DNA from: Actinospica robiniae DSM 44927
GTDB taxonomy: Bacteria; Actinomycetota; Actinomycetes; Streptomycetales; Catenulisporaceae
Length of the DNA stretch: 64,000 nt
Reading direction: 5' to 3'
NCBI RefSeq assembly: GCF_000504285.1
Contig: NZ_KI632511.1
Coordinates: forward strand, 2,539,372 to 2,603,371
Part shown: one piece after another, positions 26,878 through 36,086 of the stretch
Numbering within the stretch: position 1 is the first letter of the stretch
Layout of the letters: each line of letters opens with the position of its first letter
Translations under genes and position numbers: made by a program
Notes under the pieces: generated by a model
The model's input: only the letters and a program-made list of their open reading frames with translations
Told to the model about the DNA's origin: nothing
The model's database searches: none

Positions 26878-28068
26878 TTAGAAGGCGCCGACCCCGTTCG
26901 GGGTGCCGAGGCCGGTGGGACCGTCCCAGCCGGCGCGGGCCTTGCAGAGCTGGCTCGTGGAGCACGAGCCGTCACTGCCGGAGGTCACGTCGTTGAGCGA
27001 GCCGGTGTTGGCGTAGGCCAGCGCGGCGTTGTTCACCGAGGCGGTGTTGCCGGCGAGGGCGTAGACGCTCGCGATGATCGGCGAGGCCACGCTCGTGCCG
27101 CCGTAGACCTGCCAGCCGACGTAGCCCTCGTACGCGGTCGAGTCGTATACGGCGACGCCGGTGTTCGGGTCGGCCACGGCCGACACGTCGGCGATGGCGC
27201 GCTTGGAGCAGCCGGTGCCCACGCTGGCCTGGTAGCTCGGCTGCGCGTCGTAGGCCGAGCAGCCCGCGCCGGCGTCGGACCACGCGGTCTCGGTCCAGCC
27301 ACGGGAGTTCGAGGACGTGCTCAGCGAGGTGCCGCCGACCGCGGTGACGTAGGGGCTGGCGGCCGGGTACTGGGCGCCGTAGCCGCTGTCGCCGGAGGAC
27401 GCGGTGATCGCGATGCCCGGGTGGTCGTAGTAGGTGGTGTCATAGGTCTTGTCCGAGGAGGACTCGCTGCCGCCGTAGCTGTTGGAGATCGCGTCGGCAC
27501 CGAGCGCCGCGGCCTCGTTGACCGCCTTGCCCAGGTTCGCATTGGAGGAGCTGGTGGCCTCCACCAGGATGATGTGGCAGTTAGGGCAGGTGGCCGAGAC
27601 CATGTCCAGGTCCAGCGACTCCTCGGTGGCCCAGCCGGCGTCGGTCTTGGGCAGCGAGGTGGTGGAGCCGGTCTGGCTGACGATCTTCAGGCAGCCGCTG
27701 GCCACCGTGCACGCCGCGAGGCCGAACTGGCTGCGGTAGACGGCGAGGTCGGCCGCGGCGGTCGGGTCGTTGTAGGCGTCGACGATGGCGACGGTCTCGC
27801 CGCTGCCGGCCGTGCTCGAGGGCAGCTTGTAGGCCGACTGGATGCTCGACGGGCCGTAGCCCGAGGGGGTGGCGTGCGCCGTGGCGTCGATCTTGTGCGA
27901 CCTGGCGTCGTTGCGGATGGCGTCGCTGTGCGCCCAGTTCGCGGCCGAGGAGGCCGCGGCCGCGTGGGCGGCAGCCGGGGCCGCGGCCGCGGCGAACGCG
28001 GGGGTCGCGCCGAGTCCCGTCGCCACGGCGGTAGCCGCGACGACGAGCGTGGGTATCAGGCGGGGCAT
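26878..28068 (-). CDS. secreted S53-family serine-carboxyl peptidase (sedolisin)
   Basis: The 396-residue protein has a Sec signal (LIPTLVVAATAVATGLGATPAFA) and the S53 catalytic set: Glu/Asp in ATEESLDLDMV, Asp in SSGDSGYG and Ser in GGTSVASP. Sedolisins are acid-active endopeptidases. Only a short segment separates the signal from the catalytic start (YGPSSIQSAYKLP), so the large activation propeptide seen in kumamolisins is absent. The ATG at 28068 follows GGAGGATCAC. That Shine-Dalgarno lies inside the stem at 28071-28124. Monocistronic, with a strong terminator. Confidence 0.9.
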   Translation of the reverse strand: MPRLIPTLVVAATAVATGLGATPAFAAAAAPAAAHAAAASSAANWAHSDAIRNDARSHKIDATAHATPSGYGPSSIQSAYKLPSSTAGSGETVAIVDAYNDPTAAADLAVYRSQFGLAACTVASGCLKIVSQTGSTTSLPKTDAGWATEESLDLDMVSATCPNCHIILVEATSSSNANLGKAVNEAAALGADAISNSYGGSESSSDKTYDTTYYDHPGIAITASSGDSGYGAQYPAASPYVTAVGGTSLSTSSNSRGWTETAWSDAGAGCSAYDAQPSYQASVGTGCSKRAIADVSAVADPNTGVAVYDSTAYEGYVGWQVYGGTSVASPIIASVYALAGNTASVNNAALAYANTGSLNDVTSGSDGSCSTSQLCKARAGWDGPTGLGTPNGVGAF

Positions 28069-28070
28069 GT

Positions 28071-28124
28071 GATCCTCCGTCTCGAGCCGCCCCGTCGTGT
28101 CGGGACGGCATTGAGACGGAGGAT
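28071..28124 (-). promoter_or_regulatory. 5-prime UTR hairpin sequestering the peptidase ribosome-binding site
   Basis: In the mRNA sense, ATCCTCCGTCTC (28124-28113) pairs perfectly with GAGACGGAGGAT (28083-28072). Inside, GCCGTCCCG pairs with CGGGGCGGC (one G-U) around loop ACACGA. The paired 3-prime strand contains the GGAGG Shine-Dalgarno, three bases before the ATG triplet region. This 21-bp structure should block initiation unless opened, as in an RNA thermometer or a protein- or ligand-controlled switch. Confidence 0.65.
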
Positions 28125-28261
28125 GGCGAACACCGGGCCAGACCAGAGCAAAGCCGCGGCAAACACTGGGCAATAGCCCTTTAGCGTTGCGCGTATTCGT
28201 ACTGTTCGAGCAGGTGGCAAGCCATCAAAACCCTGTATTGGTAGCCAGAGTATGAGAAGGC

Positions 28262-29038
28262 TTAGTCGGGGAGCCGCACCCCGGTGATCTCGGCGAGCAC
28301 CGCGAGCAGCTTCTCCTGCTGGGCTTCGTCGCGCGCCTCGGGATTGGCCGTCAGGACGCGGCGGTGCTTGAGGTAGCGGCCGCTGATCCCGATCTCGTCC
28401 GAGTCCGTGCCGACGGCGAGCCAGACCTGCGTGTCGGCACCCTGCGGCAGCTCGTCGGTGGCGGCCGGCCCGCCCATCCGGGTCTTGACCCAGCCGGGAT
28501 CGACCGCGTTCACGACCGTCTTCGGCCAGCGGCGGGCGACCGCGAAGGCCAGCATCACGTCGTAGAGCTTCGAGTCGCTGTAGGCCTGCATGCCGTCCCA
28601 GCTGCGGTAGTCGAACTGAAGGTCGTCCCATTCGACCCGGCCCGCCTCCTCAAGGCCCGAGGTCAGGTAGATCAGCCGCGAGGGCCTGGGCATCAGGGCG
28701 GTGAGCAGGTAGGGAGCGACCACGTTGATCTGGAAGATCCGCTCGAGGCCGTCCGCGGTGACCGCCCGCTCGGGCACTCCCCCGCCCACGCCCGCGTTGT
28801 GGATCACGGCGTCGAAAGGCCCGACCCGCGCGGCCGCGGCAGCGAGCTCGCGGGTCTGCGCGAGCGAGGCGAGGTCGCCGACGACGATGCCGGCGGCCTC
28901 CGGCAGGAGCACGTGGGCGTCAGCCGCCCGGGCCTCGTCCCGAGCGTGCAGCACGACCTGGTGCCCGGCCGCGATCAAGGTGGTGGCGGTCTCCAGGCCG
29001 ATGCCCTGGGTCGACCCGGTCACGAAAACGCTGCTCAC
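28262..29038 (-). CDS. short-chain dehydrogenase/reductase
   Basis: The 258-residue SDR has the NAD(P) motif VFVTGSTQGIGLETA, the structural motif VIHNAGVGGG and the catalytic segment LIYLTSG..YSDSK (YxxxK in QAYSDSKLYD). It resembles retinol dehydrogenase/WW-oxidoreductase-like SDRs. The GTG at 29038 is chosen because GAGGGGGC precedes it and the Rossmann strand begins at once. It lies downstream of the lanthipeptide synthetase gene on the same strand, but a repeat-filled 172-base gap separates them, so a tailoring role is only a possibility. Confidence 0.85.
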   Translation of the reverse strand: MSSVFVTGSTQGIGLETATTLIAAGHQVVLHARDEARAADAHVLLPEAAGIVVGDLASLAQTRELAAAAARVGPFDAVIHNAGVGGGVPERAVTADGLERIFQINVVAPYLLTALMPRPSRLIYLTSGLEEAGRVEWDDLQFDYRSWDGMQAYSDSKLYDVMLAFAVARRWPKTVVNAVDPGWVKTRMGGPAATDELPQGADTQVWLAVGTDSDEIGISGRYLKHRRVLTANPEARDEAQQEKLLAVLAEITGVRLPD

Positions 29039-29057
29039 GTTGTAAGCCCCCTCGGCG

Positions 29058-29245
29058 CGATGGAGATCTTCTGTACCGCGGCAGCATACCCGCGCGCACC
29101 ACCCACACTTTGCCCGCACGCACGATGGCTACCTTCTGTACCGCGGCAGCCTACCTGTGTGCGCCTTCACCGTTTGCCCGCGCCCGTCGCGGTCTTCTAC
29201 ATCGAGGCGGCTACCCGCGCCCACCATCACCGTTCGCCCGCACGG
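29058..29245. repeat. three degenerate ~61-65-bp tandem repeats
   Basis: Each unit contains CTTCTGTACCGCGGCAGC or a relative (starting at 29068, 29133 and 29194), then a (C/T)CAC...TTTGCCCGC segment. The last unit covers the final codons of the LanL gene (tail PVRANGDGGRG), and the upstream copies look like duplicated, decayed versions of this gene end. Confidence 0.65.
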
Positions 29246-31907
29246 GTATCGGCATCGGCATCGGCAGGCTCCACGGCCCGCCGCGCTCGGCGAGGCGGCG
29301 GAAGAACGCGAGCACCCCCGCGTTGCCGAACGCCCACGACGCGCAGCCGTCTTCAGGTCTGTCCACCATCAAAACCGGGTGGGTGGGCGTGCCCGCACCG
29401 CGCAGCAACAAGAAGGCCGCTGCCTCGTCGGCGCCGTCCCAGTAGCGGCCGGCCCGTCCGCCTTCTCCACCTTGGACGCCCTGCTCGGCGAGGGCCACAT
29501 CTATCAGGGTATTGCCGACGCCGGCCAGCCCGCAGCACTGCGCGATCACGCTGACGTGCGGTAGGAAAGCGACGCAGGCGTCAGCTATTCGCCCGGCGAG
29601 CAAGCCGAACTCTGGATCGTCGAACACGTCGGCCGCATGCAGCAAGGTCTGGTTGATCCCCGCCATGCCCTGACACCAAGACACGGCTATGGGCGCGGCG
29701 TAGGGCGTGGGCAGCCGATCGAGCAGCGATTCCGCGCGCGCACGCAGCAGGTTCGCCCACTCGCGGGATTGGCCGAGGATCTCGTCGTCATGGGTCCGCT
29801 CAGCGTAGTAGAGCAGGAATTCGACGGTGCCGGCCAGACCGTGCGCGCGGCCGGTCGAGGTCTCGACCGCAGCTTGCGCCGGAAGCAGATCGTCGTGCTC
29901 GTTCCGCCCGGCCGCGCTGCCGTCGCAGATCGCCTGCGCACACCACCGGGCGACCTCGAGGTGATCCGCGCCGCCGCTTCCGAGATCGCTCAGGACGAGG
30001 TGGCCGATCCCCACACCTGCCGCGCCGATCATCAGGTCCGCCCCGACCGGCTTCCACTCCTCTCCCGGCAGCACCGGCCCGGCATACGCGTCGCCGACGT
30101 CGATGCCGGCCGCAGCAGCGTGGGCGAGGAAGACGTCCACGCCGGTGCGGCCCGACAAGTAGCCGTGCGGCAGGCGCATCTCGTCGGCGACCCGCACCGC
30201 GAACCGGGCCAATTCGCCGACGTGCTCGCGCACACCAGGCCGGTCGAGGTGATGCAGAAGTTCGAGCCCTGCTCCGGCCGCGCCGCTGTAGATCGAGGCG
30301 TCGTGGGTGATCGAGCGGCTCGACGGACCGGTGATGCTCCGATGCGACTGTTCGAGCAGGTCGGTGAGCAGGCTCTCCCGAATGTGCGCGGGCAGCAGCG
30401 GATCGAGCGCGGCGCCGGTCGTGGTCTGCGGCGCGGTCTGGTCGCCCACCACACCAGCAGCAAGCCGACGCGCGGCAGCGTGGGCGCGCTCGTCCAAGCT
30501 CAGCAGGTCTTCGATGGCGCCCATCACCCCGGCCGGTGCCTCGCCGTAGCGGCGGCGAAGGTATTGCAGGGCGCGGTGGGCCGGAAGCTCGAGATCCTCG
30601 CCGAGCGTGCTCGGCGACAGGCTGCTCTCGGCGTAGAGCAGGGTCATGCCGAGGCCGAAGAAGTCGTCGGACTCGCTCGGCTCCTCACCGCGGCGCTGCC
30701 GGGCCGGCGCGTAGCCGGGTGTGCCGCCGGGCAGGTGCAGGTCCTGGTACGAGGCGAGCCCGAAGTCGATGAGGGTGATGCTCTCACCCGCCACGACGAT
30801 GTTGCGCGGCGTCAGATCACGCATGATCACGCCGCGTTCGTGCACTGCGAGCAGGATCCGGGCCAGCCGCTGCGCGAGCAGCTCGAGCGGCCGCGCTCCC
30901 CGCGCCGCAGCCGCCGAGCGGACTGGGGCGTACCGGCCGTTCAAGGTCACGTCCTGAGCCAGGTTGTACCGACCGGCGTCCACGGTGACCAGGAACTCGT
31001 CCGGCCCGTGCCGGAAGTGGTCGACGAAGCCGGCCACCCCGTCGAGCCCGGCGAGGACCTGCAGCACCCGCCGCTCGTTGCGCACCCGCAACCGCACGTC
31101 GCCGGCCGCCTCGGTCTCGTCGACCAGGGCGCGGGCCTGCTTGACGATCACACTGGCACCATCGCGCTCGTCGACGGCCCGGTAGATGTTGCCGCGCCCC
31201 GACTCCAAAACGCCCTCGATCAGCCGGAAGCGTCCGCCCAGGACCTCTGCTTCGGATTCCGGTGCCATGCCGTCGGATTCCACCGCGAACGCCGCGAAGC
31301 CGGGCGTGGCTGCGACCGGATCAGGACCCTGTCGGAAGGGGTCGACGGTCCAGGACGGCTGCCGGTAACGCATCGTGGCGAGCCCTCCGAACTCCTCGTC
31401 CCGCGCGTCCGGGCCGTGGATCACGGTGACGAGCCGGGCCCGCTCGTCAGCGCCCCACTGTCGGGTGAAGGGACCATAGCGGTAGTAGACCGGCGCATCC
31501 GCGGCCACGGCGCGGTCGCTCAACACTCGCGGTCCGGCCCAGCCGCCCAACAGGTCGGCCAGGCGCAAGCCGAGTTCGCGCACCCGGTCCTGCGGCGGAT
31601 AGACCGTCACCGCCTTGCCCACCGTGGCGGGCGAACTGTGGCCGTTGTTCAGCCGGGTCAGCACCTCGGCCGACCGCGCGAGCTTGAACGAGCAGCGCTC
31701 CTCGAGCAACACCGGTATCAGCCGGTCGACCAGGTCGGCGAAGGTGGCGGCGCGGGTGGAGACGTGCAGCTTCCAACCGTGCGGCGGCAGGCCGAGATCC
31801 GGGTGGTGCAGATACAGCCAGGTCTCATTGCCACGCAGGTTGTGCGGCGACCCGGGGCACTGCTGAAGCAGGTGTCTGACCCGGCCTTCGAAATCCACTT
31901 CCGCCAT
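29211..31907 (-). CDS. class IV lanthipeptide synthetase LanL
   Basis: This 898-residue enzyme has three modules. The N-terminal phosphoSer/Thr lyase region shows GWKLHVS, CSFKLAR, KAVTVYPP and PVYYRYGPF. A Ser/Thr kinase domain follows (RLIEGVLESGRGNIYRA, IVKQARA, catalytic MRDLTPRN with Asp364, LIDFGLA). A C-terminal LanC-like cyclase completes it. The cyclase keeps zinc ligands Cys745 (SWCQG) and Cys791-Cys792 (QCCGLAG), so it is class IV rather than class III, which lacks them. The Cys-Cys-Gly triad replaces the more common Cys-His-Gly, as in three-Cys (ProcM-like) cyclases. It should phosphorylate, eliminate and cyclise the adjacent precursor. No dedicated transporter or leader peptidase gene is visible. 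Confidence 0.88.
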   Translation of the reverse strand: MAEVDFEGRVRHLLQQCPGSPHNLRGNETWLYLHHPDLGLPPHGWKLHVSTRAATFADLVDRLIPVLLEERCSFKLARSAEVLTRLNNGHSSPATVGKAVTVYPPQDRVRELGLRLADLLGGWAGPRVLSDRAVAADAPVYYRYGPFTRQWGADERARLVTVIHGPDARDEEFGGLATMRYRQPSWTVDPFRQGPDPVAATPGFAAFAVESDGMAPESEAEVLGGRFRLIEGVLESGRGNIYRAVDERDGASVIVKQARALVDETEAAGDVRLRVRNERRVLQVLAGLDGVAGFVDHFRHGPDEFLVTVDAGRYNLAQDVTLNGRYAPVRSAAAARGARPLELLAQRLARILLAVHERGVIMRDLTPRNIVVAGESITLIDFGLASYQDLHLPGGTPGYAPARQRRGEEPSESDDFFGLGMTLLYAESSLSPSTLGEDLELPAHRALQYLRRRYGEAPAGVMGAIEDLLSLDERAHAAARRLAAGVVGDQTAPQTTTGAALDPLLPAHIRESLLTDLLEQSHRSITGPSSRSITHDASIYSGAAGAGLELLHHLDRPGVREHVGELARFAVRVADEMRLPHGYLSGRTGVDVFLAHAAAAGIDVGDAYAGPVLPGEEWKPVGADLMIGAAGVGIGHLVLSDLGSGGADHLEVARWCAQAICDGSAAGRNEHDDLLPAQAAVETSTGRAHGLAGTVEFLLYYAERTHDDEILGQSREWANLLRARAESLLDRLPTPYAAPIAVSWCQGMAGINQTLLHAADVFDDPEFGLLAGRIADACVAFLPHVSVIAQCCGLAGVGNTLIDVALAEQGVQGGEGGRAGRYWDGADEAAAFLLLRGAGTPTHPVLMVDRPEDGCASWAFGNAGVLAFFRRLAERGGPWSLPMPMPIPVRANGDGGRG

Positions 31908-32016
31908 GTCGAACGCCTTTCCGCGAGCGCCACCGGGCGTGGCGCGAAACCTGGCCCCCGCACGGCCTGACGGCCACGCCGCTCACCGCGCCGACCTTAC
32001 GAATCAGACCCCTTCG

Positions 32017-32184
32017 TCACTGGGTGACGGAGTGGGTGATCAGATCGATGTTGGTGTGCTCCTCGCAACACCCGACGCACCGGCTGCGGTCGTGCAATCC
32101 GGTGGTGACCTCGTCAAAGGCGATCGCGGGCTCCACGACCTGCGTGCCGGCGTCACGGGGCTCCAGCTCGAACAGTTCCCTCAC
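32017..32184 (-). CDS. probable class IV lanthipeptide precursor (LanA)
   Basis: From the GTG at 32184 the peptide has 55 residues. The leader MRELFELEPRDAG carries an amphipathic ELFELE motif like class III/IV leaders. The C-terminal core has Thr27, Thr28, Ser34, Cys36, Cys39, Cys40 and then Thr44, Thr50, Ser52, Thr54 (DRSRCVGCC and EEHTNIDLITHSVTQ). Ser/Thr lie on both sides of a Cys cluster, so rings in either direction are possible. AGG seven bases before the GTG supports this start. In-frame starts at 32205 (ATG) and 32271 (GTG) would lengthen the leader. It lies 109 bases upstream of the LanL gene on the same strand. Confidence 0.78.
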   Translation of the reverse strand: MRELFELEPRDAGTQVVEPAIAFDEVTTGLHDRSRCVGCCEEHTNIDLITHSVTQ

Positions 32185-32347
32185 GGGTTTACCTGCCTTC
32201 CTCATCCGGTGGTGCGGATTCTTCGACGGCGCGCCCGTTTTCGCGGCCGATGGGTGCGGCCCCGAGGACACGACCTTTCCCGATCGTGTCTAGCAGAGCC
32301 CCTTTGACTGTCAACCGCGCATTCGTCCCGGCAATCTTTCGACTCAC

Positions 32348-32457
32348 TCAGACGCCACCGGCATTCCCACCCCCGCGGGCCTCGCGCCATTGCGGGCTGT
32401 CCAGGAAGTGGTTGTCGAACCGGTCCTGCGTCTCGAGAATCTCCTGCGGGCTCGCCC
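32348..32457 (-). pseudogene. 3-prime part of IS-interrupted cupin gene
   Basis: In frame, this segment encodes SPQEILETQDRFDNHFLDSP followed by QWREARGGGNAGGV and a stop. Joined across the IS element after removing one target-site copy, it continues the cupin at 34082-34509 without a shift (176 codons in total). It includes the left target duplication at 32448-32457. Confidence 0.85.
32448..32457. repeat. target-site duplication, left copy
   Basis: GGGCTCGCCC occurs here and at 34082-34091, directly abutting the two terminal inverted repeats of the IS element. Confidence 0.88.
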
Positions 32458-34081
32458 CAATGCCGCTCACGGTAGATTGATCATGCGGTGAGTTCGAGGT
32501 TTCCCGTGCTGATCCGTCCCGGATGCAGCACTTGGCGTGCCGGCGGGAGGTTGGCGATGCGTAGGGTCGGCGGCCCGGCGTGGCGTACCCCGACATCAGT
32601 GGCCTTCTTCACGGCGTACTGGTTGTGACGTGCCCGTTTGACCACGCGCGGGTAGGAACGGTGGCGCCGCTCGCGATGCAGCTCGCGCGGTGCGGTGATC
32701 TCCGTGTTGAACCGCTCGAGCAGGGCCGCCAGGCCCTCAGGGGGAAAAGGCCGCCGGATCATCGATCCGGCGGCGGATGATGCGGACCGCGTTGGTGAAC
32801 TTCACCCGGTCCGGGTCGATGTCCGCCTCGGTCGCGGCCCGACAGATCAGGGAGTTGATCGCATAGTGGGTGAGCAGGTAGCCGTAGAGCTCCTGGATCA
32901 CCATGTCAGGGCTCTGGGACCGCATGACCTTCCCCGGTCCCCGTAGAACCGTCTTGGCCTGCGCGTTCGCCTGCTCGTGCTCCCACCGCTCGTGATATCC
33001 CGCCGCCAGCAGCGCGGCCGGGGCACTGCGCGCATCCAGCAGCGTCGTCAGCAGGCAAAACAGCTCCCGCTCCCCAGCGGTGCCCCGGTCCGCCACCTCG
33101 TACTCCACCACCCGAACCAGCCGCGCGCGATCCTCGAACTCCTCCAGATCCGCCCCCGCCCGAGCCGCCGCCAGGACCTGCTCACGGACCTTCGCCGAGG
33201 TACGCGACGCGAACACCACCGAGGTGTACGAGCCGTCCCCGAGCTTGGCGACCAGCGGCAGCGCAATCGTGTCACCCAGGCGCCACAGCAGCTCAGCACC
33301 CGTCTGCGACGCCTGACACCAGTCGGCGAACGAGTAGAAGTTGCGATCGGCCAACAACAGCATGTCCTGGTCGAGGAACCGGTAGAGCCGACGCGCCGCG
33401 GACTGCTCCCCGCTGCCCTTGCCGCCGCACGGCCCCGCGTCCGCGCCGATCGGAGCCCGCGAGCCGCACTCGACCAACGTCACCACCCGCATCTTCGGGA
33501 ACGCCGACCGGTTGCCGCCCGAACCGGCGTACCCGAAGTACCCCGCGTTCGCCGCACTGTCCGGCACATCCCACTCGAACCCGTCGATCGAGACCATCCG
33601 CCTGCCCGCCAGCCACGCCCCCCGCGTCAGCATCCCCGCCACCGGCTGCGCAACCTGCTCGAACACCTCCCGGACCACGTCAGAACCCAGACGCTTGCGC
33701 GCCTGGGTGATCCCGCCCGACCCGGGACACTCCCACCCGGCGTCCCAACGCCCCCAATCCTTCAGGACCTCGGTCAACCGGGTCAGGACCTCCTGATAGT
33801 CCTCGTCCGCGAACAACGCCATCGCCATCGCGAAATACACCATGACATGCGCCGGAAGCTTCGCATCCGCCCGCTTCGCACCCCTGCCGAACTCCGCCAC
33901 CGCGTCATCGATCACCACACGCGGCACCGCCGCCGCCAACAACCCGACCGACACATGATCCGTCAAACGGCCCGACAGGCCCTCCACAGCACTATGCGAC
34001 ACCCCCCGACCGTAACGCCCCACCAATCACCGCACGAACACACAGGTCACAAGCATGATCCCACTACGCTGAGCGGCATTG
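32458..34081 (-). mobile_element. IS4-family insertion sequence, 1624 bp
   Basis: The ends are 18-bp imperfect inverted repeats: CAATGCCGCTCACGGTAG (32458-32475) and its near complement CTACGCTGAGCGGCATTG (34064-34081), with two mismatches. A 10-bp direct repeat flanks it. The inside is filled by one DDE transposase gene in two frames. The clean target duplication and exact gene split show a recent insertion. Confidence 0.92.
32737..34002 (-). CDS. IS4-family transposase, main frame (C-terminus continues in +1 frame)
   Basis: The DDE catalytic residues are visible: Asp in SIDGFEWDVPD, Asp in LLADRNFYSF and Glu in YHERWEHEQANAQAK (the Y-R-E-K signature of IS4). The frame stops at TGA (32737-32739) after DDPAAFSP. 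The usual C-terminal region of this family (LLERFNTEI, RRHRSYPRVVKRARHNQY, GPPTLRIANL) continues in the +1 frame to 32481. The junction reads TTTTCCCCCTGAGG. Either a programmed +1 shift at CCC-TGA makes the full protein, or the element is inactivated. The GTG at 34002 is a likely start; a TTG at 34026 is possible. Confidence 0.85.
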   Translation of the reverse strand: MSHSAVEGLSGRLTDHVSVGLLAAAVPRVVIDDAVAEFGRGAKRADAKLPAHVMVYFAMAMALFADEDYQEVLTRLTEVLKDWGRWDAGWECPGSGGITQARKRLGSDVVREVFEQVAQPVAGMLTRGAWLAGRRMVSIDGFEWDVPDSAANAGYFGYAGSGGNRSAFPKMRVVTLVECGSRAPIGADAGPCGGKGSGEQSAARRLYRFLDQDMLLLADRNFYSFADWCQASQTGAELLWRLGDTIALPLVAKLGDGSYTSVVFASRTSAKVREQVLAAARAGADLEEFEDRARLVRVVEYEVADRGTAGERELFCLLTTLLDARSAPAALLAAGYHERWEHEQANAQAKTVLRGPGKVMRSQSPDMVIQELYGYLLTHYAINSLICRAATEADIDPDRVKFTNAVRIIRRRIDDPAAFSP

Positions 34082-34091
34082 GGGCTCGCCC
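34082..34091. repeat. target-site duplication, right copy
   Basis: Second GGGCTCGCCC, adjoining the right terminal inverted repeat. Confidence 0.88.
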
Positions 34092-34509
34092 GGCCGCGCG
34101 TCACCCGGTCGATCAACCGGAAGTAGGCACTGCGGTCCTGCATCCCGGGCGCGAAGACGATCAGGAGGTCGGCGGCCGAGCCCGCGGGCGTGGCGAAGGC
34201 GTGTGGCATGGACTTGGGCACCACCAGGAAGTCCCCTTTCTCCAGCGTCAGCACCCTGTCCCCGGCCAAGGCCTGCGCCACACCCTCGATGACGAAGAAA
34301 ATCTCCGCGGAGCCGTTATGGAAGTGCGGCGGCGGACCCTCCACGCCCGCCGCGAGCCGAGTGCGGTTGGCGCTGATCGCGCCGTCCGTGGTCGAGCCGT
34401 CGGCGAGCAGGCGGACGGTGTTGGCCCCGGCACCCAGCTGCTCGGCCTCGTCCGCCCTGGTCAGCAGGGCATTACCACTCCACGCGCGCTCGTTCGGGAA
34501 CACGGTCAC
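34082..34509 (-). pseudogene. cupin-domain protein, 5-prime part, interrupted by IS4 element
   Basis: From a GTG at 34509 (AGGAGG upstream) the frame encodes a single-domain cupin: motif 1 PPPHFHNGSAEIFFVIEG and motif 2 GDFLVVPKSMPHAFATP hold the metal-binding His/Glu residues. The coding sequence then runs into the IS at RASP, so the present product ends in IS-encoded residues (NAAQRSGIMLVTCVFVR) at 34027. The lost tail is at 32348. The metal core is intact, so a shortened protein could still fold. It is divergent from the MarR gene and was probably its target. Confidence 0.85.
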
Positions 34510-34549
34510 GATGGCGCCTCCTCGCAGTCTCCGATTTACTTCTCTAGAA

Positions 34550-34571
34550 GATAGTACACCGGAATACTATC
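34550..34571. promoter_or_regulatory. probable MarR operator
   Basis: GATAGTA (34550-34556) and TACTATC (34565-34571) form a perfect 7-bp inverted repeat with an 8-base spacer in the short divergent region between the cupin and MarR genes, in an AT-rich stretch likely to overlap both promoters. Size and spacing suit a winged-helix dimer. Confidence 0.7.
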
Positions 34572-34594
34572 ACCCGGTAGCTAGAATCGCGGAC

Positions 34595-35113
34595 ATGAGC
34601 GAGCAAGAGCCCGGGGACGCCGTCGACGAGATCCTGGCCCAGTGGCGCCGGGAGCGTCCTGACCTGGACCTCAGCGCCCTGGGTGTGTTCGGCAGGATCG
34701 CCCAGCTGTCATCGGTGCTGGGCTCGGTGATGGACCGGGTCTACGCCCGGCACGGGCTGCGCGGCGGCGAGTTCGACGTGCTGACCGCATTGCGCCGGGC
34801 ACTGCCCCCGCACGCGCTGACCCCCTCAGAACTGGCCGAGGCGCTCATGATGTCGCGGGCCGGCATGACGAAGCGGCTCGACCGGCTCGAGGCGGCCGGC
34901 CTGGTCGAGCGGACCCTCGATCCGGCCGACCGGCGCAGCTTCCGCATCACCCTGACCCGCTCGGGCCTCGAACTGATCGACGCGGCACTCACCGAGCACG
35001 CGGCGAACCTCGCCCAGCTCGAGACGGCGCTCGAACCGGGGGAACGCTCGGCCCTCGAACACTCGCTACGAACCCTGCTGCGCACCGTGAGCGAGCAGCC
35101 GCCCGCGCCTTGA
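34595..35113 (+). CDS. MarR-family transcriptional regulator
   Basis: The 172-residue protein has an N-terminal dimerisation helix (DEILAQWRRERPDLDLSALGVFGRIAQL) and a winged-helix domain (GLRGGEFDVLTALRRA, LTPSELAEALMMSRAGMTKRLDRLEAAGLVER, and wing DPADRRSFRITLT). It probably represses the divergent cupin gene and itself through the palindrome at 34550. The ligand is unknown. Confidence 0.9.
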   Translation: MSEQEPGDAVDEILAQWRRERPDLDLSALGVFGRIAQLSSVLGSVMDRVYARHGLRGGEFDVLTALRRALPPHALTPSELAEALMMSRAGMTKRLDRLEAAGLVERTLDPADRRSFRITLTRSGLELIDAALTEHAANLAQLETALEPGERSALEHSLRTLLRTVSEQPPAP

Positions 35114-35118
35114 CGCGG

Positions 35119-35151
35119 CGCCGGGCTCGAATGGGCGCAGCGAGCCCGGCG
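35119..35151 (+). terminator. terminator after marR-type gene
   Basis: CGCCGGGCTCG (35119-35129) pairs with 35141-35151 around an 11-base loop, six bases after the stop. Confidence 0.75.
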
Positions 35152-35287
35152 AGCCGGTTCTCCGAGGTCAGCCCGGGTCCACCCCACGCATCTCCCCGGC
35201 GCCACCCGTTACCATCCTGCGACAACCGATCTTCGTTCCCTTCGTCTCTCCCCTCGAAGACCCACGGGGATCGAGGGAGCGAACCAG

Positions 35288-35965
35288 ATGTCGAACAATC
35301 AGATCATCGGGCGGTGCGCGGTCGGCGTCGCCGCCTTGGGCGCGGCCGCCGCACTGGGCGGTTGCACTTCGGCCGACACGGTCTCCGCCGGGTCCGCGCC
35401 GCAGAGCACTGCCGCGGTCGTCACGGCGACGACCGCACCGGCCGCCGCCACGAGCGCCGCGGCGGACCCCGCCGTGAGCGGGGCCACCGCGACCGGTTCG
35501 AGCGCCGGCTCGGGCAGCTCCGGCAGCTCGAACGGCTGCGCCGGCACCCAGCTGACCGTCGCGGAGACGAACCCGGACGCGAGCCTGGGGCATCGCGCGT
35601 ACGTGCTCGTGTTCACCAATAAGAGCTCGAAGGCGTGCACGGTGAGCGGATATCCGGGCGCGGCGGTGGCCGACACCTCAGGCAAGGTCGTCCTCAACGC
35701 GCAGCGCACGCTCGTCGGCTACGAGAGCAGCGGCACCAAGGTGACGACGGTGACGCTCGCCCCCGGCGCCTCGGCCTCCTCCGTACTCGAGTGGGATGTG
35801 GCCGGGCCGCTCGGCTCGTCCTGCCCGGGGGCCGCGGGCGGCCACCTGCTGATCACCCCGCCCAACACCACCACGACCACCTCGTTCGAGCTGCCGAACG
35901 ACCTGTGCGGGGACTTCCAGACCCATCCGGTCATAGCCGGGAAGGCCGGCCGCGTGAACGGCTGA
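35288..35965 (+). CDS. DUF4232 lipoprotein
   Basis: The 225-residue product has a lipoprotein signal (VGVAALGAAAALGGC, lipobox LGGC), an Ala/Ser/Thr-rich spacer and a DUF4232 domain (YVLVFTNKSSKACTVSGYPGAAV, LLITPPNTTTTTSFELP, FQTHPVIAG). Such proteins are common surface lipoproteins of actinobacteria without a known role. A paralogue lies at 43340. The start follows GGGAGCGAACCAG. Confidence 0.85.
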   Translation: MSNNQIIGRCAVGVAALGAAAALGGCTSADTVSAGSAPQSTAAVVTATTAPAAATSAAADPAVSGATATGSSAGSGSSGSSNGCAGTQLTVAETNPDASLGHRAYVLVFTNKSSKACTVSGYPGAAVADTSGKVVLNAQRTLVGYESSGTKVTTVTLAPGASASSVLEWDVAGPLGSSCPGAAGGHLLITPPNTTTTTSFELPNDLCGDFQTHPVIAGKAGRVNG

Positions 35966-36086
35966 CCCGGAGCCCCTGGACCTGAGCGGACCTGACCCGA
36001 GCCACGATCGCTCCACCGCAGCTGACCCGGGGCTCCGCCGCATCCCGCGAGCGCATGCGACGGCGTTTTGGGGGCAAAGTGGGCTC

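What the first reader, a model, noticed from the sequence alone, without database searches (positions are those of the whole stretch)
29211..32184. Class IV lanthipeptide locus with a three-Cys zinc site and a Cys-cluster precursor
LanL (29211-31907) has lyase, kinase and zinc-bearing cyclase domains. The zinc ligands read Cys745, Cys791, Cys792 (CCG) instead of CHG, and the 46-residue spacing fits LanC. The upstream 55-residue peptide has an ELFELE leader and a core with RCVGCC between Ser/Thr on both sides. Few class IV systems have been characterised; CCG cyclases in other classes are linked to broad ring tolerance. The product cannot be assigned to a named lantibiotic from sequence alone.
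Basis: partly seen in the sequence, partly recalled or inferred. Interest (0 to 1): 0.75.

Follow-up and report, generated by a model that had tools for sequence, protein, structure and literature searches.

The report
Curvocidin-type class IV lanthipeptide gene pair
A soil actinomycete carries a small two-gene unit that should make a ring-bearing (lanthionine) peptide; its three-cysteine zinc site is shared by a whole enzyme branch that already has one characterised, structurally solved member, so this is a new member with a new peptide core rather than a new kind of system.

Summary
lanL (29211-31907, minus, 898 aa) has lyase, kinase and LanC-like domains and a Cys745/Cys791/Cys792 triad. 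Upstream, a GTG-started 55-codon gene (32017-32184, minus) encodes a leader (MRELFELEPRDAG...) and a CVGCC core. A profile made only from relatives' precursors picks exactly this peptide (18.3 bits; next best in the window -17.5; best of 20 shuffled windows -12.1). The three-Cys site is not an oddity of this gene. It marks one clade (38 rows on one side of a branch, SH-aLRT 100; one further CCC row, L144, lies elsewhere). The clade holds CuvL, the curvocidin synthetase (PDB 8car/8cav), whose triad I read as CCC; a 2024 survey already tabulated 'L-CCC' synthetases. New here is a CxxC(C) core family with conserved Ser/Thr C-terminal of the Cys cluster, also found in Planosporangium, Fodinicola and Catenulispora-like genomes. 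An IS4 element present in nine near-identical copies has split the cupin gene upstream. Verdict: real, apparently intact, a new member of a known kind. Off-window, sister LanLs sit beside Cys-less precursors, and others beside repeat-leader precursors.

The parts
29211..31907 (-). lanL, class IV lanthionine synthetase, 898 aa (lyase ~22-196, kinase ~239-425, LanC-like cyclase ~536-805)
29673..29675 (-). Cys745 codon, first presumed zinc ligand (SWCQG)
   Evidence: aligns with CuvL C729
29532..29537 (-). Cys791-Cys792 codons (QCCG), second and third presumed zinc ligands; Cys792 stands where CCH enzymes have His
   Evidence: aligns with CuvL C775/C776
32017..32184 (-). lanA, 55-residue precursor, GTG start, TGA stop
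32065..32079 (-). CVGCC (Cys36, Cys39, Cys40) of the precursor core
   Evidence: Cys36 and Cys39 in 14 of 14 rows, Cys40 in 12 of 14
32457..34082 (.). IS4-family element, 1626 bp; 8 other near-identical copies in the genome; 8-bp target duplication GGCTCGCC at 32449-32456 and 34083-34090
32737..34026 (-). IS4 transposase, 429 aa
34083..34509 (-). 5' part of a cupin-domain gene split by the IS; its 3' part lies at about 32348-32456; 175 aa at the empty site
28262..29119 (-). short-chain dehydrogenase downstream of lanL; no homologue in the relatives' loci compared, part of the unit not shown

Best explanation
lanA-lanL is a two-gene class IV lanthipeptide unit of the CuvL (curvocidin) branch. 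LanA's leader (LFELEPRDAG...VEP) docks as a helix on the lyase/kinase groove of LanL. The kinase phosphorylates Ser/Thr of the core, the lyase eliminates phosphate to Dha/Dhb, and the LanC-like domain, with zinc held by Cys745, Cys791 and Cys792, adds the thiols of Cys36, Cys39 and Cys40 to dehydro residues. Conserved acceptors lie mostly C-terminal of the Cys cluster (44 or 45; 50-52), so at least two rings should run with Cys before its partner. Leader removal and export use proteins encoded elsewhere. Shown by sequence: domains, conserved residues, precursor family, clade, predicted fold. Inferred: zinc binding, dehydration, ring direction, leader docking, unclustered maturation.
For: Domains; class IV model far above class III (598.7 vs 273.8 bits; both models hit 37 of 37 rows of A2). 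Kinase residues Lys256, Asp364, Asn369, Asp381, lyase-domain residues Lys46, His48, Lys75, Lys98 and Arg143, and Cys745/791/792 are invariant in the 37-row CCC alignment (that these are the catalytic ones is from recall of kinases and OspF/SpvC lyases). AlphaFold model pLDDT 88.1, pTM 0.89; best solved match CuvL 8car, Z 46.4, rmsd 3.9 over 793 residues, ahead of LanCL2 (33.6) and ThurKC (30.7). CuvL has the CCC triad and two upstream ORFs that begin (M/V)SALLEPRDAG. Precursor control; 25 of 49 identical to the Planosporangium precursor; Cys36/39 in 14 of 14 rows, Ser/Thr at 44/45 and within 50-52 in 14 of 14, Ser/Thr34 in 12 of 14 (11 of the 14 rows are Catenulispora-like and two of those are identical). 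Precedent: venezuelin has Cys34-Dhb39 and Cys45-Dha49 (PMC2843593, passages). A helical leader in a lyase/kinase groove is seen in ThurKC (PMC10604976, passages).
Against: No activity, zinc content or product was tested. The score is below NCBI's class IV naming cut-off. No ABC ATPase motif was found in the 64 kb by a regular expression. The IS4 insertion ends 272 bases short of the lanA start and no sigma-70-like promoter was found nearby. The two other genomes of the same genus that were searched lack a LanL at E <= 1e-60. Two sister LanLs with an intact triad sit beside precursors without any Cys, so the triad does not guarantee ring formation. L072 passes the class IV cut-off without the triad (DFR), so model and triad do not always go together.
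Confidence: 0.82

Rival explanations
1. LanL is a substrate-tolerant, ProcM-like cyclase because of its three-Cys site and modifies several precursors across the genome.
For: CCG/CCC is associated with tolerance in class II enzymes (PMC12328550, passage; PMC11251773, section 10). Precursor cores vary widely across the CCC clade.
Against: A search of the 9.9-Mb genome with the full precursor found only itself; the next matches have E 1.1 and 1.96 (precursors with an unlike leader would be missed). In relatives the regex mostly found one plausible precursor per locus; two near L097 and near cuvL.
Confidence: 0.08
2. The locus is decaying: the IS4 insertion cut off transcription and no exporter remains, so no peptide is made.
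For: IS4 with near-identical genomic copies and an intact 8-bp target duplication splits the gene upstream; no ABC ATPase motif in the window.
Against: lanA and lanL are both open and lanL keeps all residues invariant in the clade alignment; the break lies 272 bases upstream of lanA, inside another gene; 44 of 57 CCC loci with enough flank also show no ABC ATPase motif within 5 kb, so that absence is usual in this clade, although cuvL has one about 1 kb away on the other strand.
Confidence: 0.15
3. The Cys cluster is not cyclised; LanL only dehydrates, and the CxxCC peptide keeps free thiols (for example as a metal-binding peptide) or takes up external thiols.
For: Two sister LanLs with an intact CCC site pair with Cys-less precursors, so the cyclase site is kept where no intramolecular ring is possible.
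Against: Cys36/39 and downstream Ser/Thr occur together in 14 of 14 precursor rows, as expected for rings; CuvL makes a lanthipeptide (PDB entry title).
Confidence: 0.07

Closest known systems
CuvL / curvocidin (PDB 8car, 8cav; Sigurdsson et al. 2023, doi 10.1002/anie.202302490; paper not held, title seen, reference entries)
   Same: Same three domains and fold (model match Z 46.4), CCC triad with 46-residue spacing, candidate precursors upstream with EPRDAG leader, same clade
   Different: 35% protein identity, a distant branch of the clade, unlike core (SCTVCHWGRTVLCDDFSTQA-type against SRCVGCCEEHTNIDLITHSVTQ); an ABC ATPase motif lies near cuvL, none in the window
'L-CCC' synthetase group of the 2024 cyclase survey (PMC11251773; passages and section 10 read)
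   Same: Lyase/kinase dehydratase with a Cys-Cys-Cys cyclase triad; 8 predicted peptides listed for the group
   Different: The text I read names no CxxCC core; its dataset was not opened, so I cannot say whether this peptide is among the 8
Venezuelin / VenL and globisporin / SgbL class IV systems (PMC2843593 passages; PMC9889658 passages)
   Same: Lyase-kinase-cyclase order and overall chemistry
   Different: Cys-Cys-His triad; in the CCH-rich set a venezuelin-like precursor (LHALPETDP leader) was found downstream of lanL in 11 of 29 loci scanned, and an ABC ATPase motif within 5 kb in 19 of 23
Planosporangium mesophilum locus L080 (uncharacterised)
   Same: 57% LanL identity; precursor with CTGCC...T...T.S
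   Different: Flank only partly held (4.2 kb downstream); its surroundings were not compared with the window

Membership tests
Class IV lanthipeptide synthetase (LanL) | N-terminal lyase, central Ser/Thr kinase and C-terminal LanC-like cyclase in one protein | tested here: met
   RamC_N, Pkinase, LANC_like in order; full-length match to CuvL
Class IV lanthipeptide synthetase (LanL) | Zinc-ligand residues present in the cyclase (absent in class III) | tested here: met
   Cys745, Cys791, Cys792 by alignment; metal itself not measured
Class IV lanthipeptide synthetase (LanL) | Adjacent precursor with leader and Ser/Thr/Cys core | tested here: met
Class IV lanthipeptide synthetase (LanL) | Dehydration and thioether cyclisation of the precursor | not testable with these tools
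   needs co-expression and mass spectrometry
NCBIfam NF038150 (NCBI's naming model for LanL) | Score at or above the curated cut-off of 650 bits | tested here: not met
   598.7 bits; not filed under this equivalog; CCC relative L069 scores 769.4
CuvL / curvocidin branch of class IV | Cys-Cys-Cys zinc triad (my definition, from CuvL's sequence) | tested here: met
CuvL / curvocidin branch of class IV | Falls in one clade with CuvL apart from CCH LanLs | tested here: met
   38 CCC rows one side of a branch, SH-aLRT 100 (quick tree, no bootstrap)
CuvL / curvocidin branch of class IV | Precursor upstream with EPRDAG-type leader | tested here: met
Curvocidin itself | Core of the precursors beside cuvL | tested here: not met
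   different core sequence and Cys spacing
Venezuelin-type (VenL/SgbL) class IV | Cys-Cys-His triad | tested here: not met
Venezuelin-type (VenL/SgbL) class IV | Downstream precursor with LHALPETDP leader and nearby ABC gene | tested here: not met
   no such ORF in the list (27000-36000, by eye); no ABC motif in the window
Class II CCG enzymes (ProcM-like) | LanM architecture | tested here: not met
   TIGR03897 39.2 bits vs cut-off 304, cyclase part only
Class II CCG enzymes (ProcM-like) | Many dispersed precursors | tested here: inconclusive
   one precursor found in the genome, but only precursors like this one would show
Class III LanKC | Cyclase without zinc ligands | tested here: not met
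   NF038151 273.8 bits vs cut-off 575

The most novel reading that the evidence does not exclude
The CCC branch of class IV uses its three-Cys cyclase in more than one way. In the window's subfamily three clustered Cys attack downstream dehydro residues to give a compact peptide whose rings all run with Cys first; in sister lineages the Cys are gone and the same intact site serves either as a relic or to add an external thiol to Dha-rich, Trp-containing repeats, so the branch would span ring formation and intermolecular thiol addition.
Probability: 0.1. Interest if true: 0.65.

Novelty: new member of a known kind. Interest (0 to 1): 0.32.

Why it matters
It ties the three-Cys zinc site to a coherent branch of class IV enzymes with its own leader motif and gene order, mostly without a clustered exporter, and anchors that branch on a solved enzyme (CuvL). 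The CxxC(C) core family gives a simple test of whether class IV cyclases close rings with Cys N-terminal to the acceptor, and the Cys-less sisters give a natural control for what the zinc site does.

Tried and rejected
CCG as a singular feature of this gene: rejected. ProcM-like dispersed substrates: searched for with this precursor, none found. Shared neighbourhood with the 20 relatives' loci (window part 18001-45000, called ORFs, blastp E 1e-10): apart from lanL only one common-family regulator-like ORF is shared, with L037; the neighbours conserved in 10 of those loci (an LtrA-like and a GNAT-like protein, judged by eye from the sequence starts) have no match here. The IS4 breaking lanA or lanL: rejected; it splits a cupin gene. 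Sigma-70 promoter scan: nothing. First genome-contig scan with the single protein found no relative; the alignment query did. A viral-contig scan gave one distant match (24% identity), not used. The ABC test is a regular expression for Walker A plus signature, not a domain search, so absence is weak evidence; cuvL itself has such a motif about 1 kb away on the other strand. The leader regex also gave downstream hits in 15 of 74 loci; by eye these are pieces of longer unrelated ORFs. The trees used 62 or 63 rows chosen by hand from the fetched loci; L098 and L125 (broken or cut lanL) were among those left out, and L144 (CCC-like triad inside the CCH branch) was kept as its own group. The set holds duplicates (window twice; L030/L044, L048/L069 and L032/L052 the same loci).

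No paper passage I read describes the CxxCC core; this is not a claim of absence, as the key class IV papers and all supplements were out of reach. The search for 'EPRDAG' found no paper in the held library.

Full report
What is there. On the minus strand, lanL (29211-31907, 898 aa) follows a 55-codon gene, lanA (32017-32184, GTG start). LanL carries RamC_N, Pkinase and LANC_like domains in that order. NCBI's class IV model is the best hit at 598.7 bits, below its 650-bit naming cut-off; class III scores 273.8. Both models hit all 37 rows of alignment A2. Residues that should be catalytic in the kinase and lyase, and the Cys745/Cys791/Cys792 triad, are invariant in that alignment.

Is the precursor real? 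I built a position matrix from 8 distinct 55-residue precursors found beside LanLs of Catenulispora-like genomes and scanned the six frames of the window. (The genomes are genus g2, unnamed there; contigs of the same lengths carry Catenulispora titles. Eleven precursors were found; two of other length were left out and one pair was identical.) The lanA peptide, starting at the GTG codon, came first with 18.3 bits; the next best scored -17.5, and the best of 20 shuffled windows -12.1. It aligns without gaps to the 55-residue relatives. In 14 rows Cys36 and Cys39 occur in 14, Cys40 in 12, Ser/Thr at 44 or 45 and within 50-52 in 14, and at 34 in 12. The closest precursors from other families are those of Planosporangium mesophilum (25 of 49 identical) and Fodinicola feengrottensis.

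Is the three-Cys site unusual? It is fixed in a clade. Of the 53 rows of the earlier set, which holds a few duplicates, 26 read CCC, 20 CCH and 7 neither. One of the seven, L072, passes the class IV cut-off (652.1 bits); the other six were picked up below it. In the trees 37 or, with CuvL, 38 CCC rows lie on one side of a branch with SH-aLRT 100. L144, with a CCC-like triad, lies inside the CCH branch, a probable second origin. The window LanL groups with Planosporangium (support 84) inside an 11-row set (99) that also holds the Catenulispora-like enzymes and those of Nonomuraea zeae and Actinoallomurus purpureus.

The CCC and CCH branches differ in more than the ligand. In 51 of 74 CCC-branch loci a leader regex found a candidate precursor upstream of lanL; the other 23 gave none by that regex, though several show one by eye, and the same regex gave 15 downstream hits that look like pieces of unrelated ORFs. 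In 11 of 29 loci, L131-L159, nearly all CCH, a venezuelin-like precursor was found, each time downstream of lanL. An ABC ATPase motif lies within 5 kb in 19 of 23 CCH loci and 13 of 57 CCC loci; 4 of 27 and 14 of 71 loci were dropped for short flanks. The window has none in 64 kb; cuvL has one about 1 kb away on the other strand.

Known counterpart. The AlphaFold model (pLDDT 88.1, pTM 0.89) matches PDB 8car best (Z 46.4, rmsd 3.9 over 793 residues), an entry titled after curvocidin and its trifunctional synthetase CuvL. A 100% match to a CuvL fragment lies in an unnamed 5.64-Mb genome; from recall the producer is Thermomonospora curvata. There CuvL reads SFCQG and QCCG, i.e. CCC, C729/C775/C776, and two short ORFs upstream begin (M/V)SALLEPRDAG. 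So the CCC type of class IV has a characterised member. I could not read that paper and do not know whether it discusses the triad. A 2024 survey (PMC11251773; passages and section 10) lists 'L-CCC' with 8 peptides among its new synthetase combinations.

How it most likely works. Leader docking on the lyase/kinase groove as in ThurKC (PMC10604976, passages), phosphorylation, elimination, then zinc-assisted thiol addition. The downstream position of the conserved Ser/Thr argues for rings with Cys N-terminal of its partner, as in two rings of venezuelin (PMC2843593, passages). Protease genes are missing from most characterised class III and IV clusters (PMC8960859, passages). All of these steps are inferred for this locus.

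The IS4 element (32457-34082, 8-bp duplication GGCTCGCC) has 8 further copies in the genome that read 100% identical, rounded, over nearly its whole length. It splits a cupin gene that reads 175 codons at the empty site. It leaves lanA and lanL intact, but its near end lies 272 bases upstream of the lanA start, so expression may be changed.

Verdict. A real, apparently intact class IV unit of the CuvL branch with a core family that I could not match to a named peptide: a new member of a known kind.

Noticed in passing
L081 (Nonomuraea zeae), L082 (Actinoallomurus purpureus), L175 (G925:C82): LanLs near the window's in the tree sit beside Cys-less precursors with EPREAG leaders and 5, 4 or 1 copies of a DS[ST]W unit; the CCC triad is intact in L081 and L082 (L175's triad lies outside the stretch held, and L175 was not in the tree). 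What the cyclase does there is open.
   Followed up: partly
L045, L046, L049, L050 (Catenulispora-like; L105 and L101 look like named copies of L045 and L049): Precursor ORFs of about 170-305 aa whose N-terminal part is a tandem array (for example 11 copies of a VVSNKLLASADANR-like unit in L050, or NVRDALSM/NVREAKL units in L045) before a single core EHQACLP(N/E)P(Y/W)PTATTR..C: a multiplied leader element.
   Followed up: partly
32457-34082: IS4-family element with near-identical genomic copies and an 8-bp target duplication, inserted in a cupin gene.
   Followed up: yes
29055-29244: Degenerate repeats with 60-65-bp spacing between the SDR gene and lanL, running into the 3' end of lanL.
   Followed up: no
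26878-28173: Secreted protease-like ORF (GTSVASP motif by eye) without a Pfam hit at E 0.001.
   Followed up: no
L144 (Actinacidiphila bryophytorum): A LanL with a CCC-like triad (RWCTG/LCCG) inside the CCH branch: a possible second origin.
   Followed up: no
L072 (G471): A protein above the class IV cut-off (652.1 bits) whose triad columns read D, F, R instead of zinc ligands.
   Followed up: no
L002, L003 (own genome): Two further LanKC/LanL-like synthetases in the same genome (29-30% identity to LanL).
   Followed up: no
L098 (Actinocatenispora rupis), L125 (Fodinicola feengrottensis): Close relatives (55-57% in the best segment) whose lanL reading frame is broken in the held sequence: pseudogenes or sequencing errors.
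   Followed up: no
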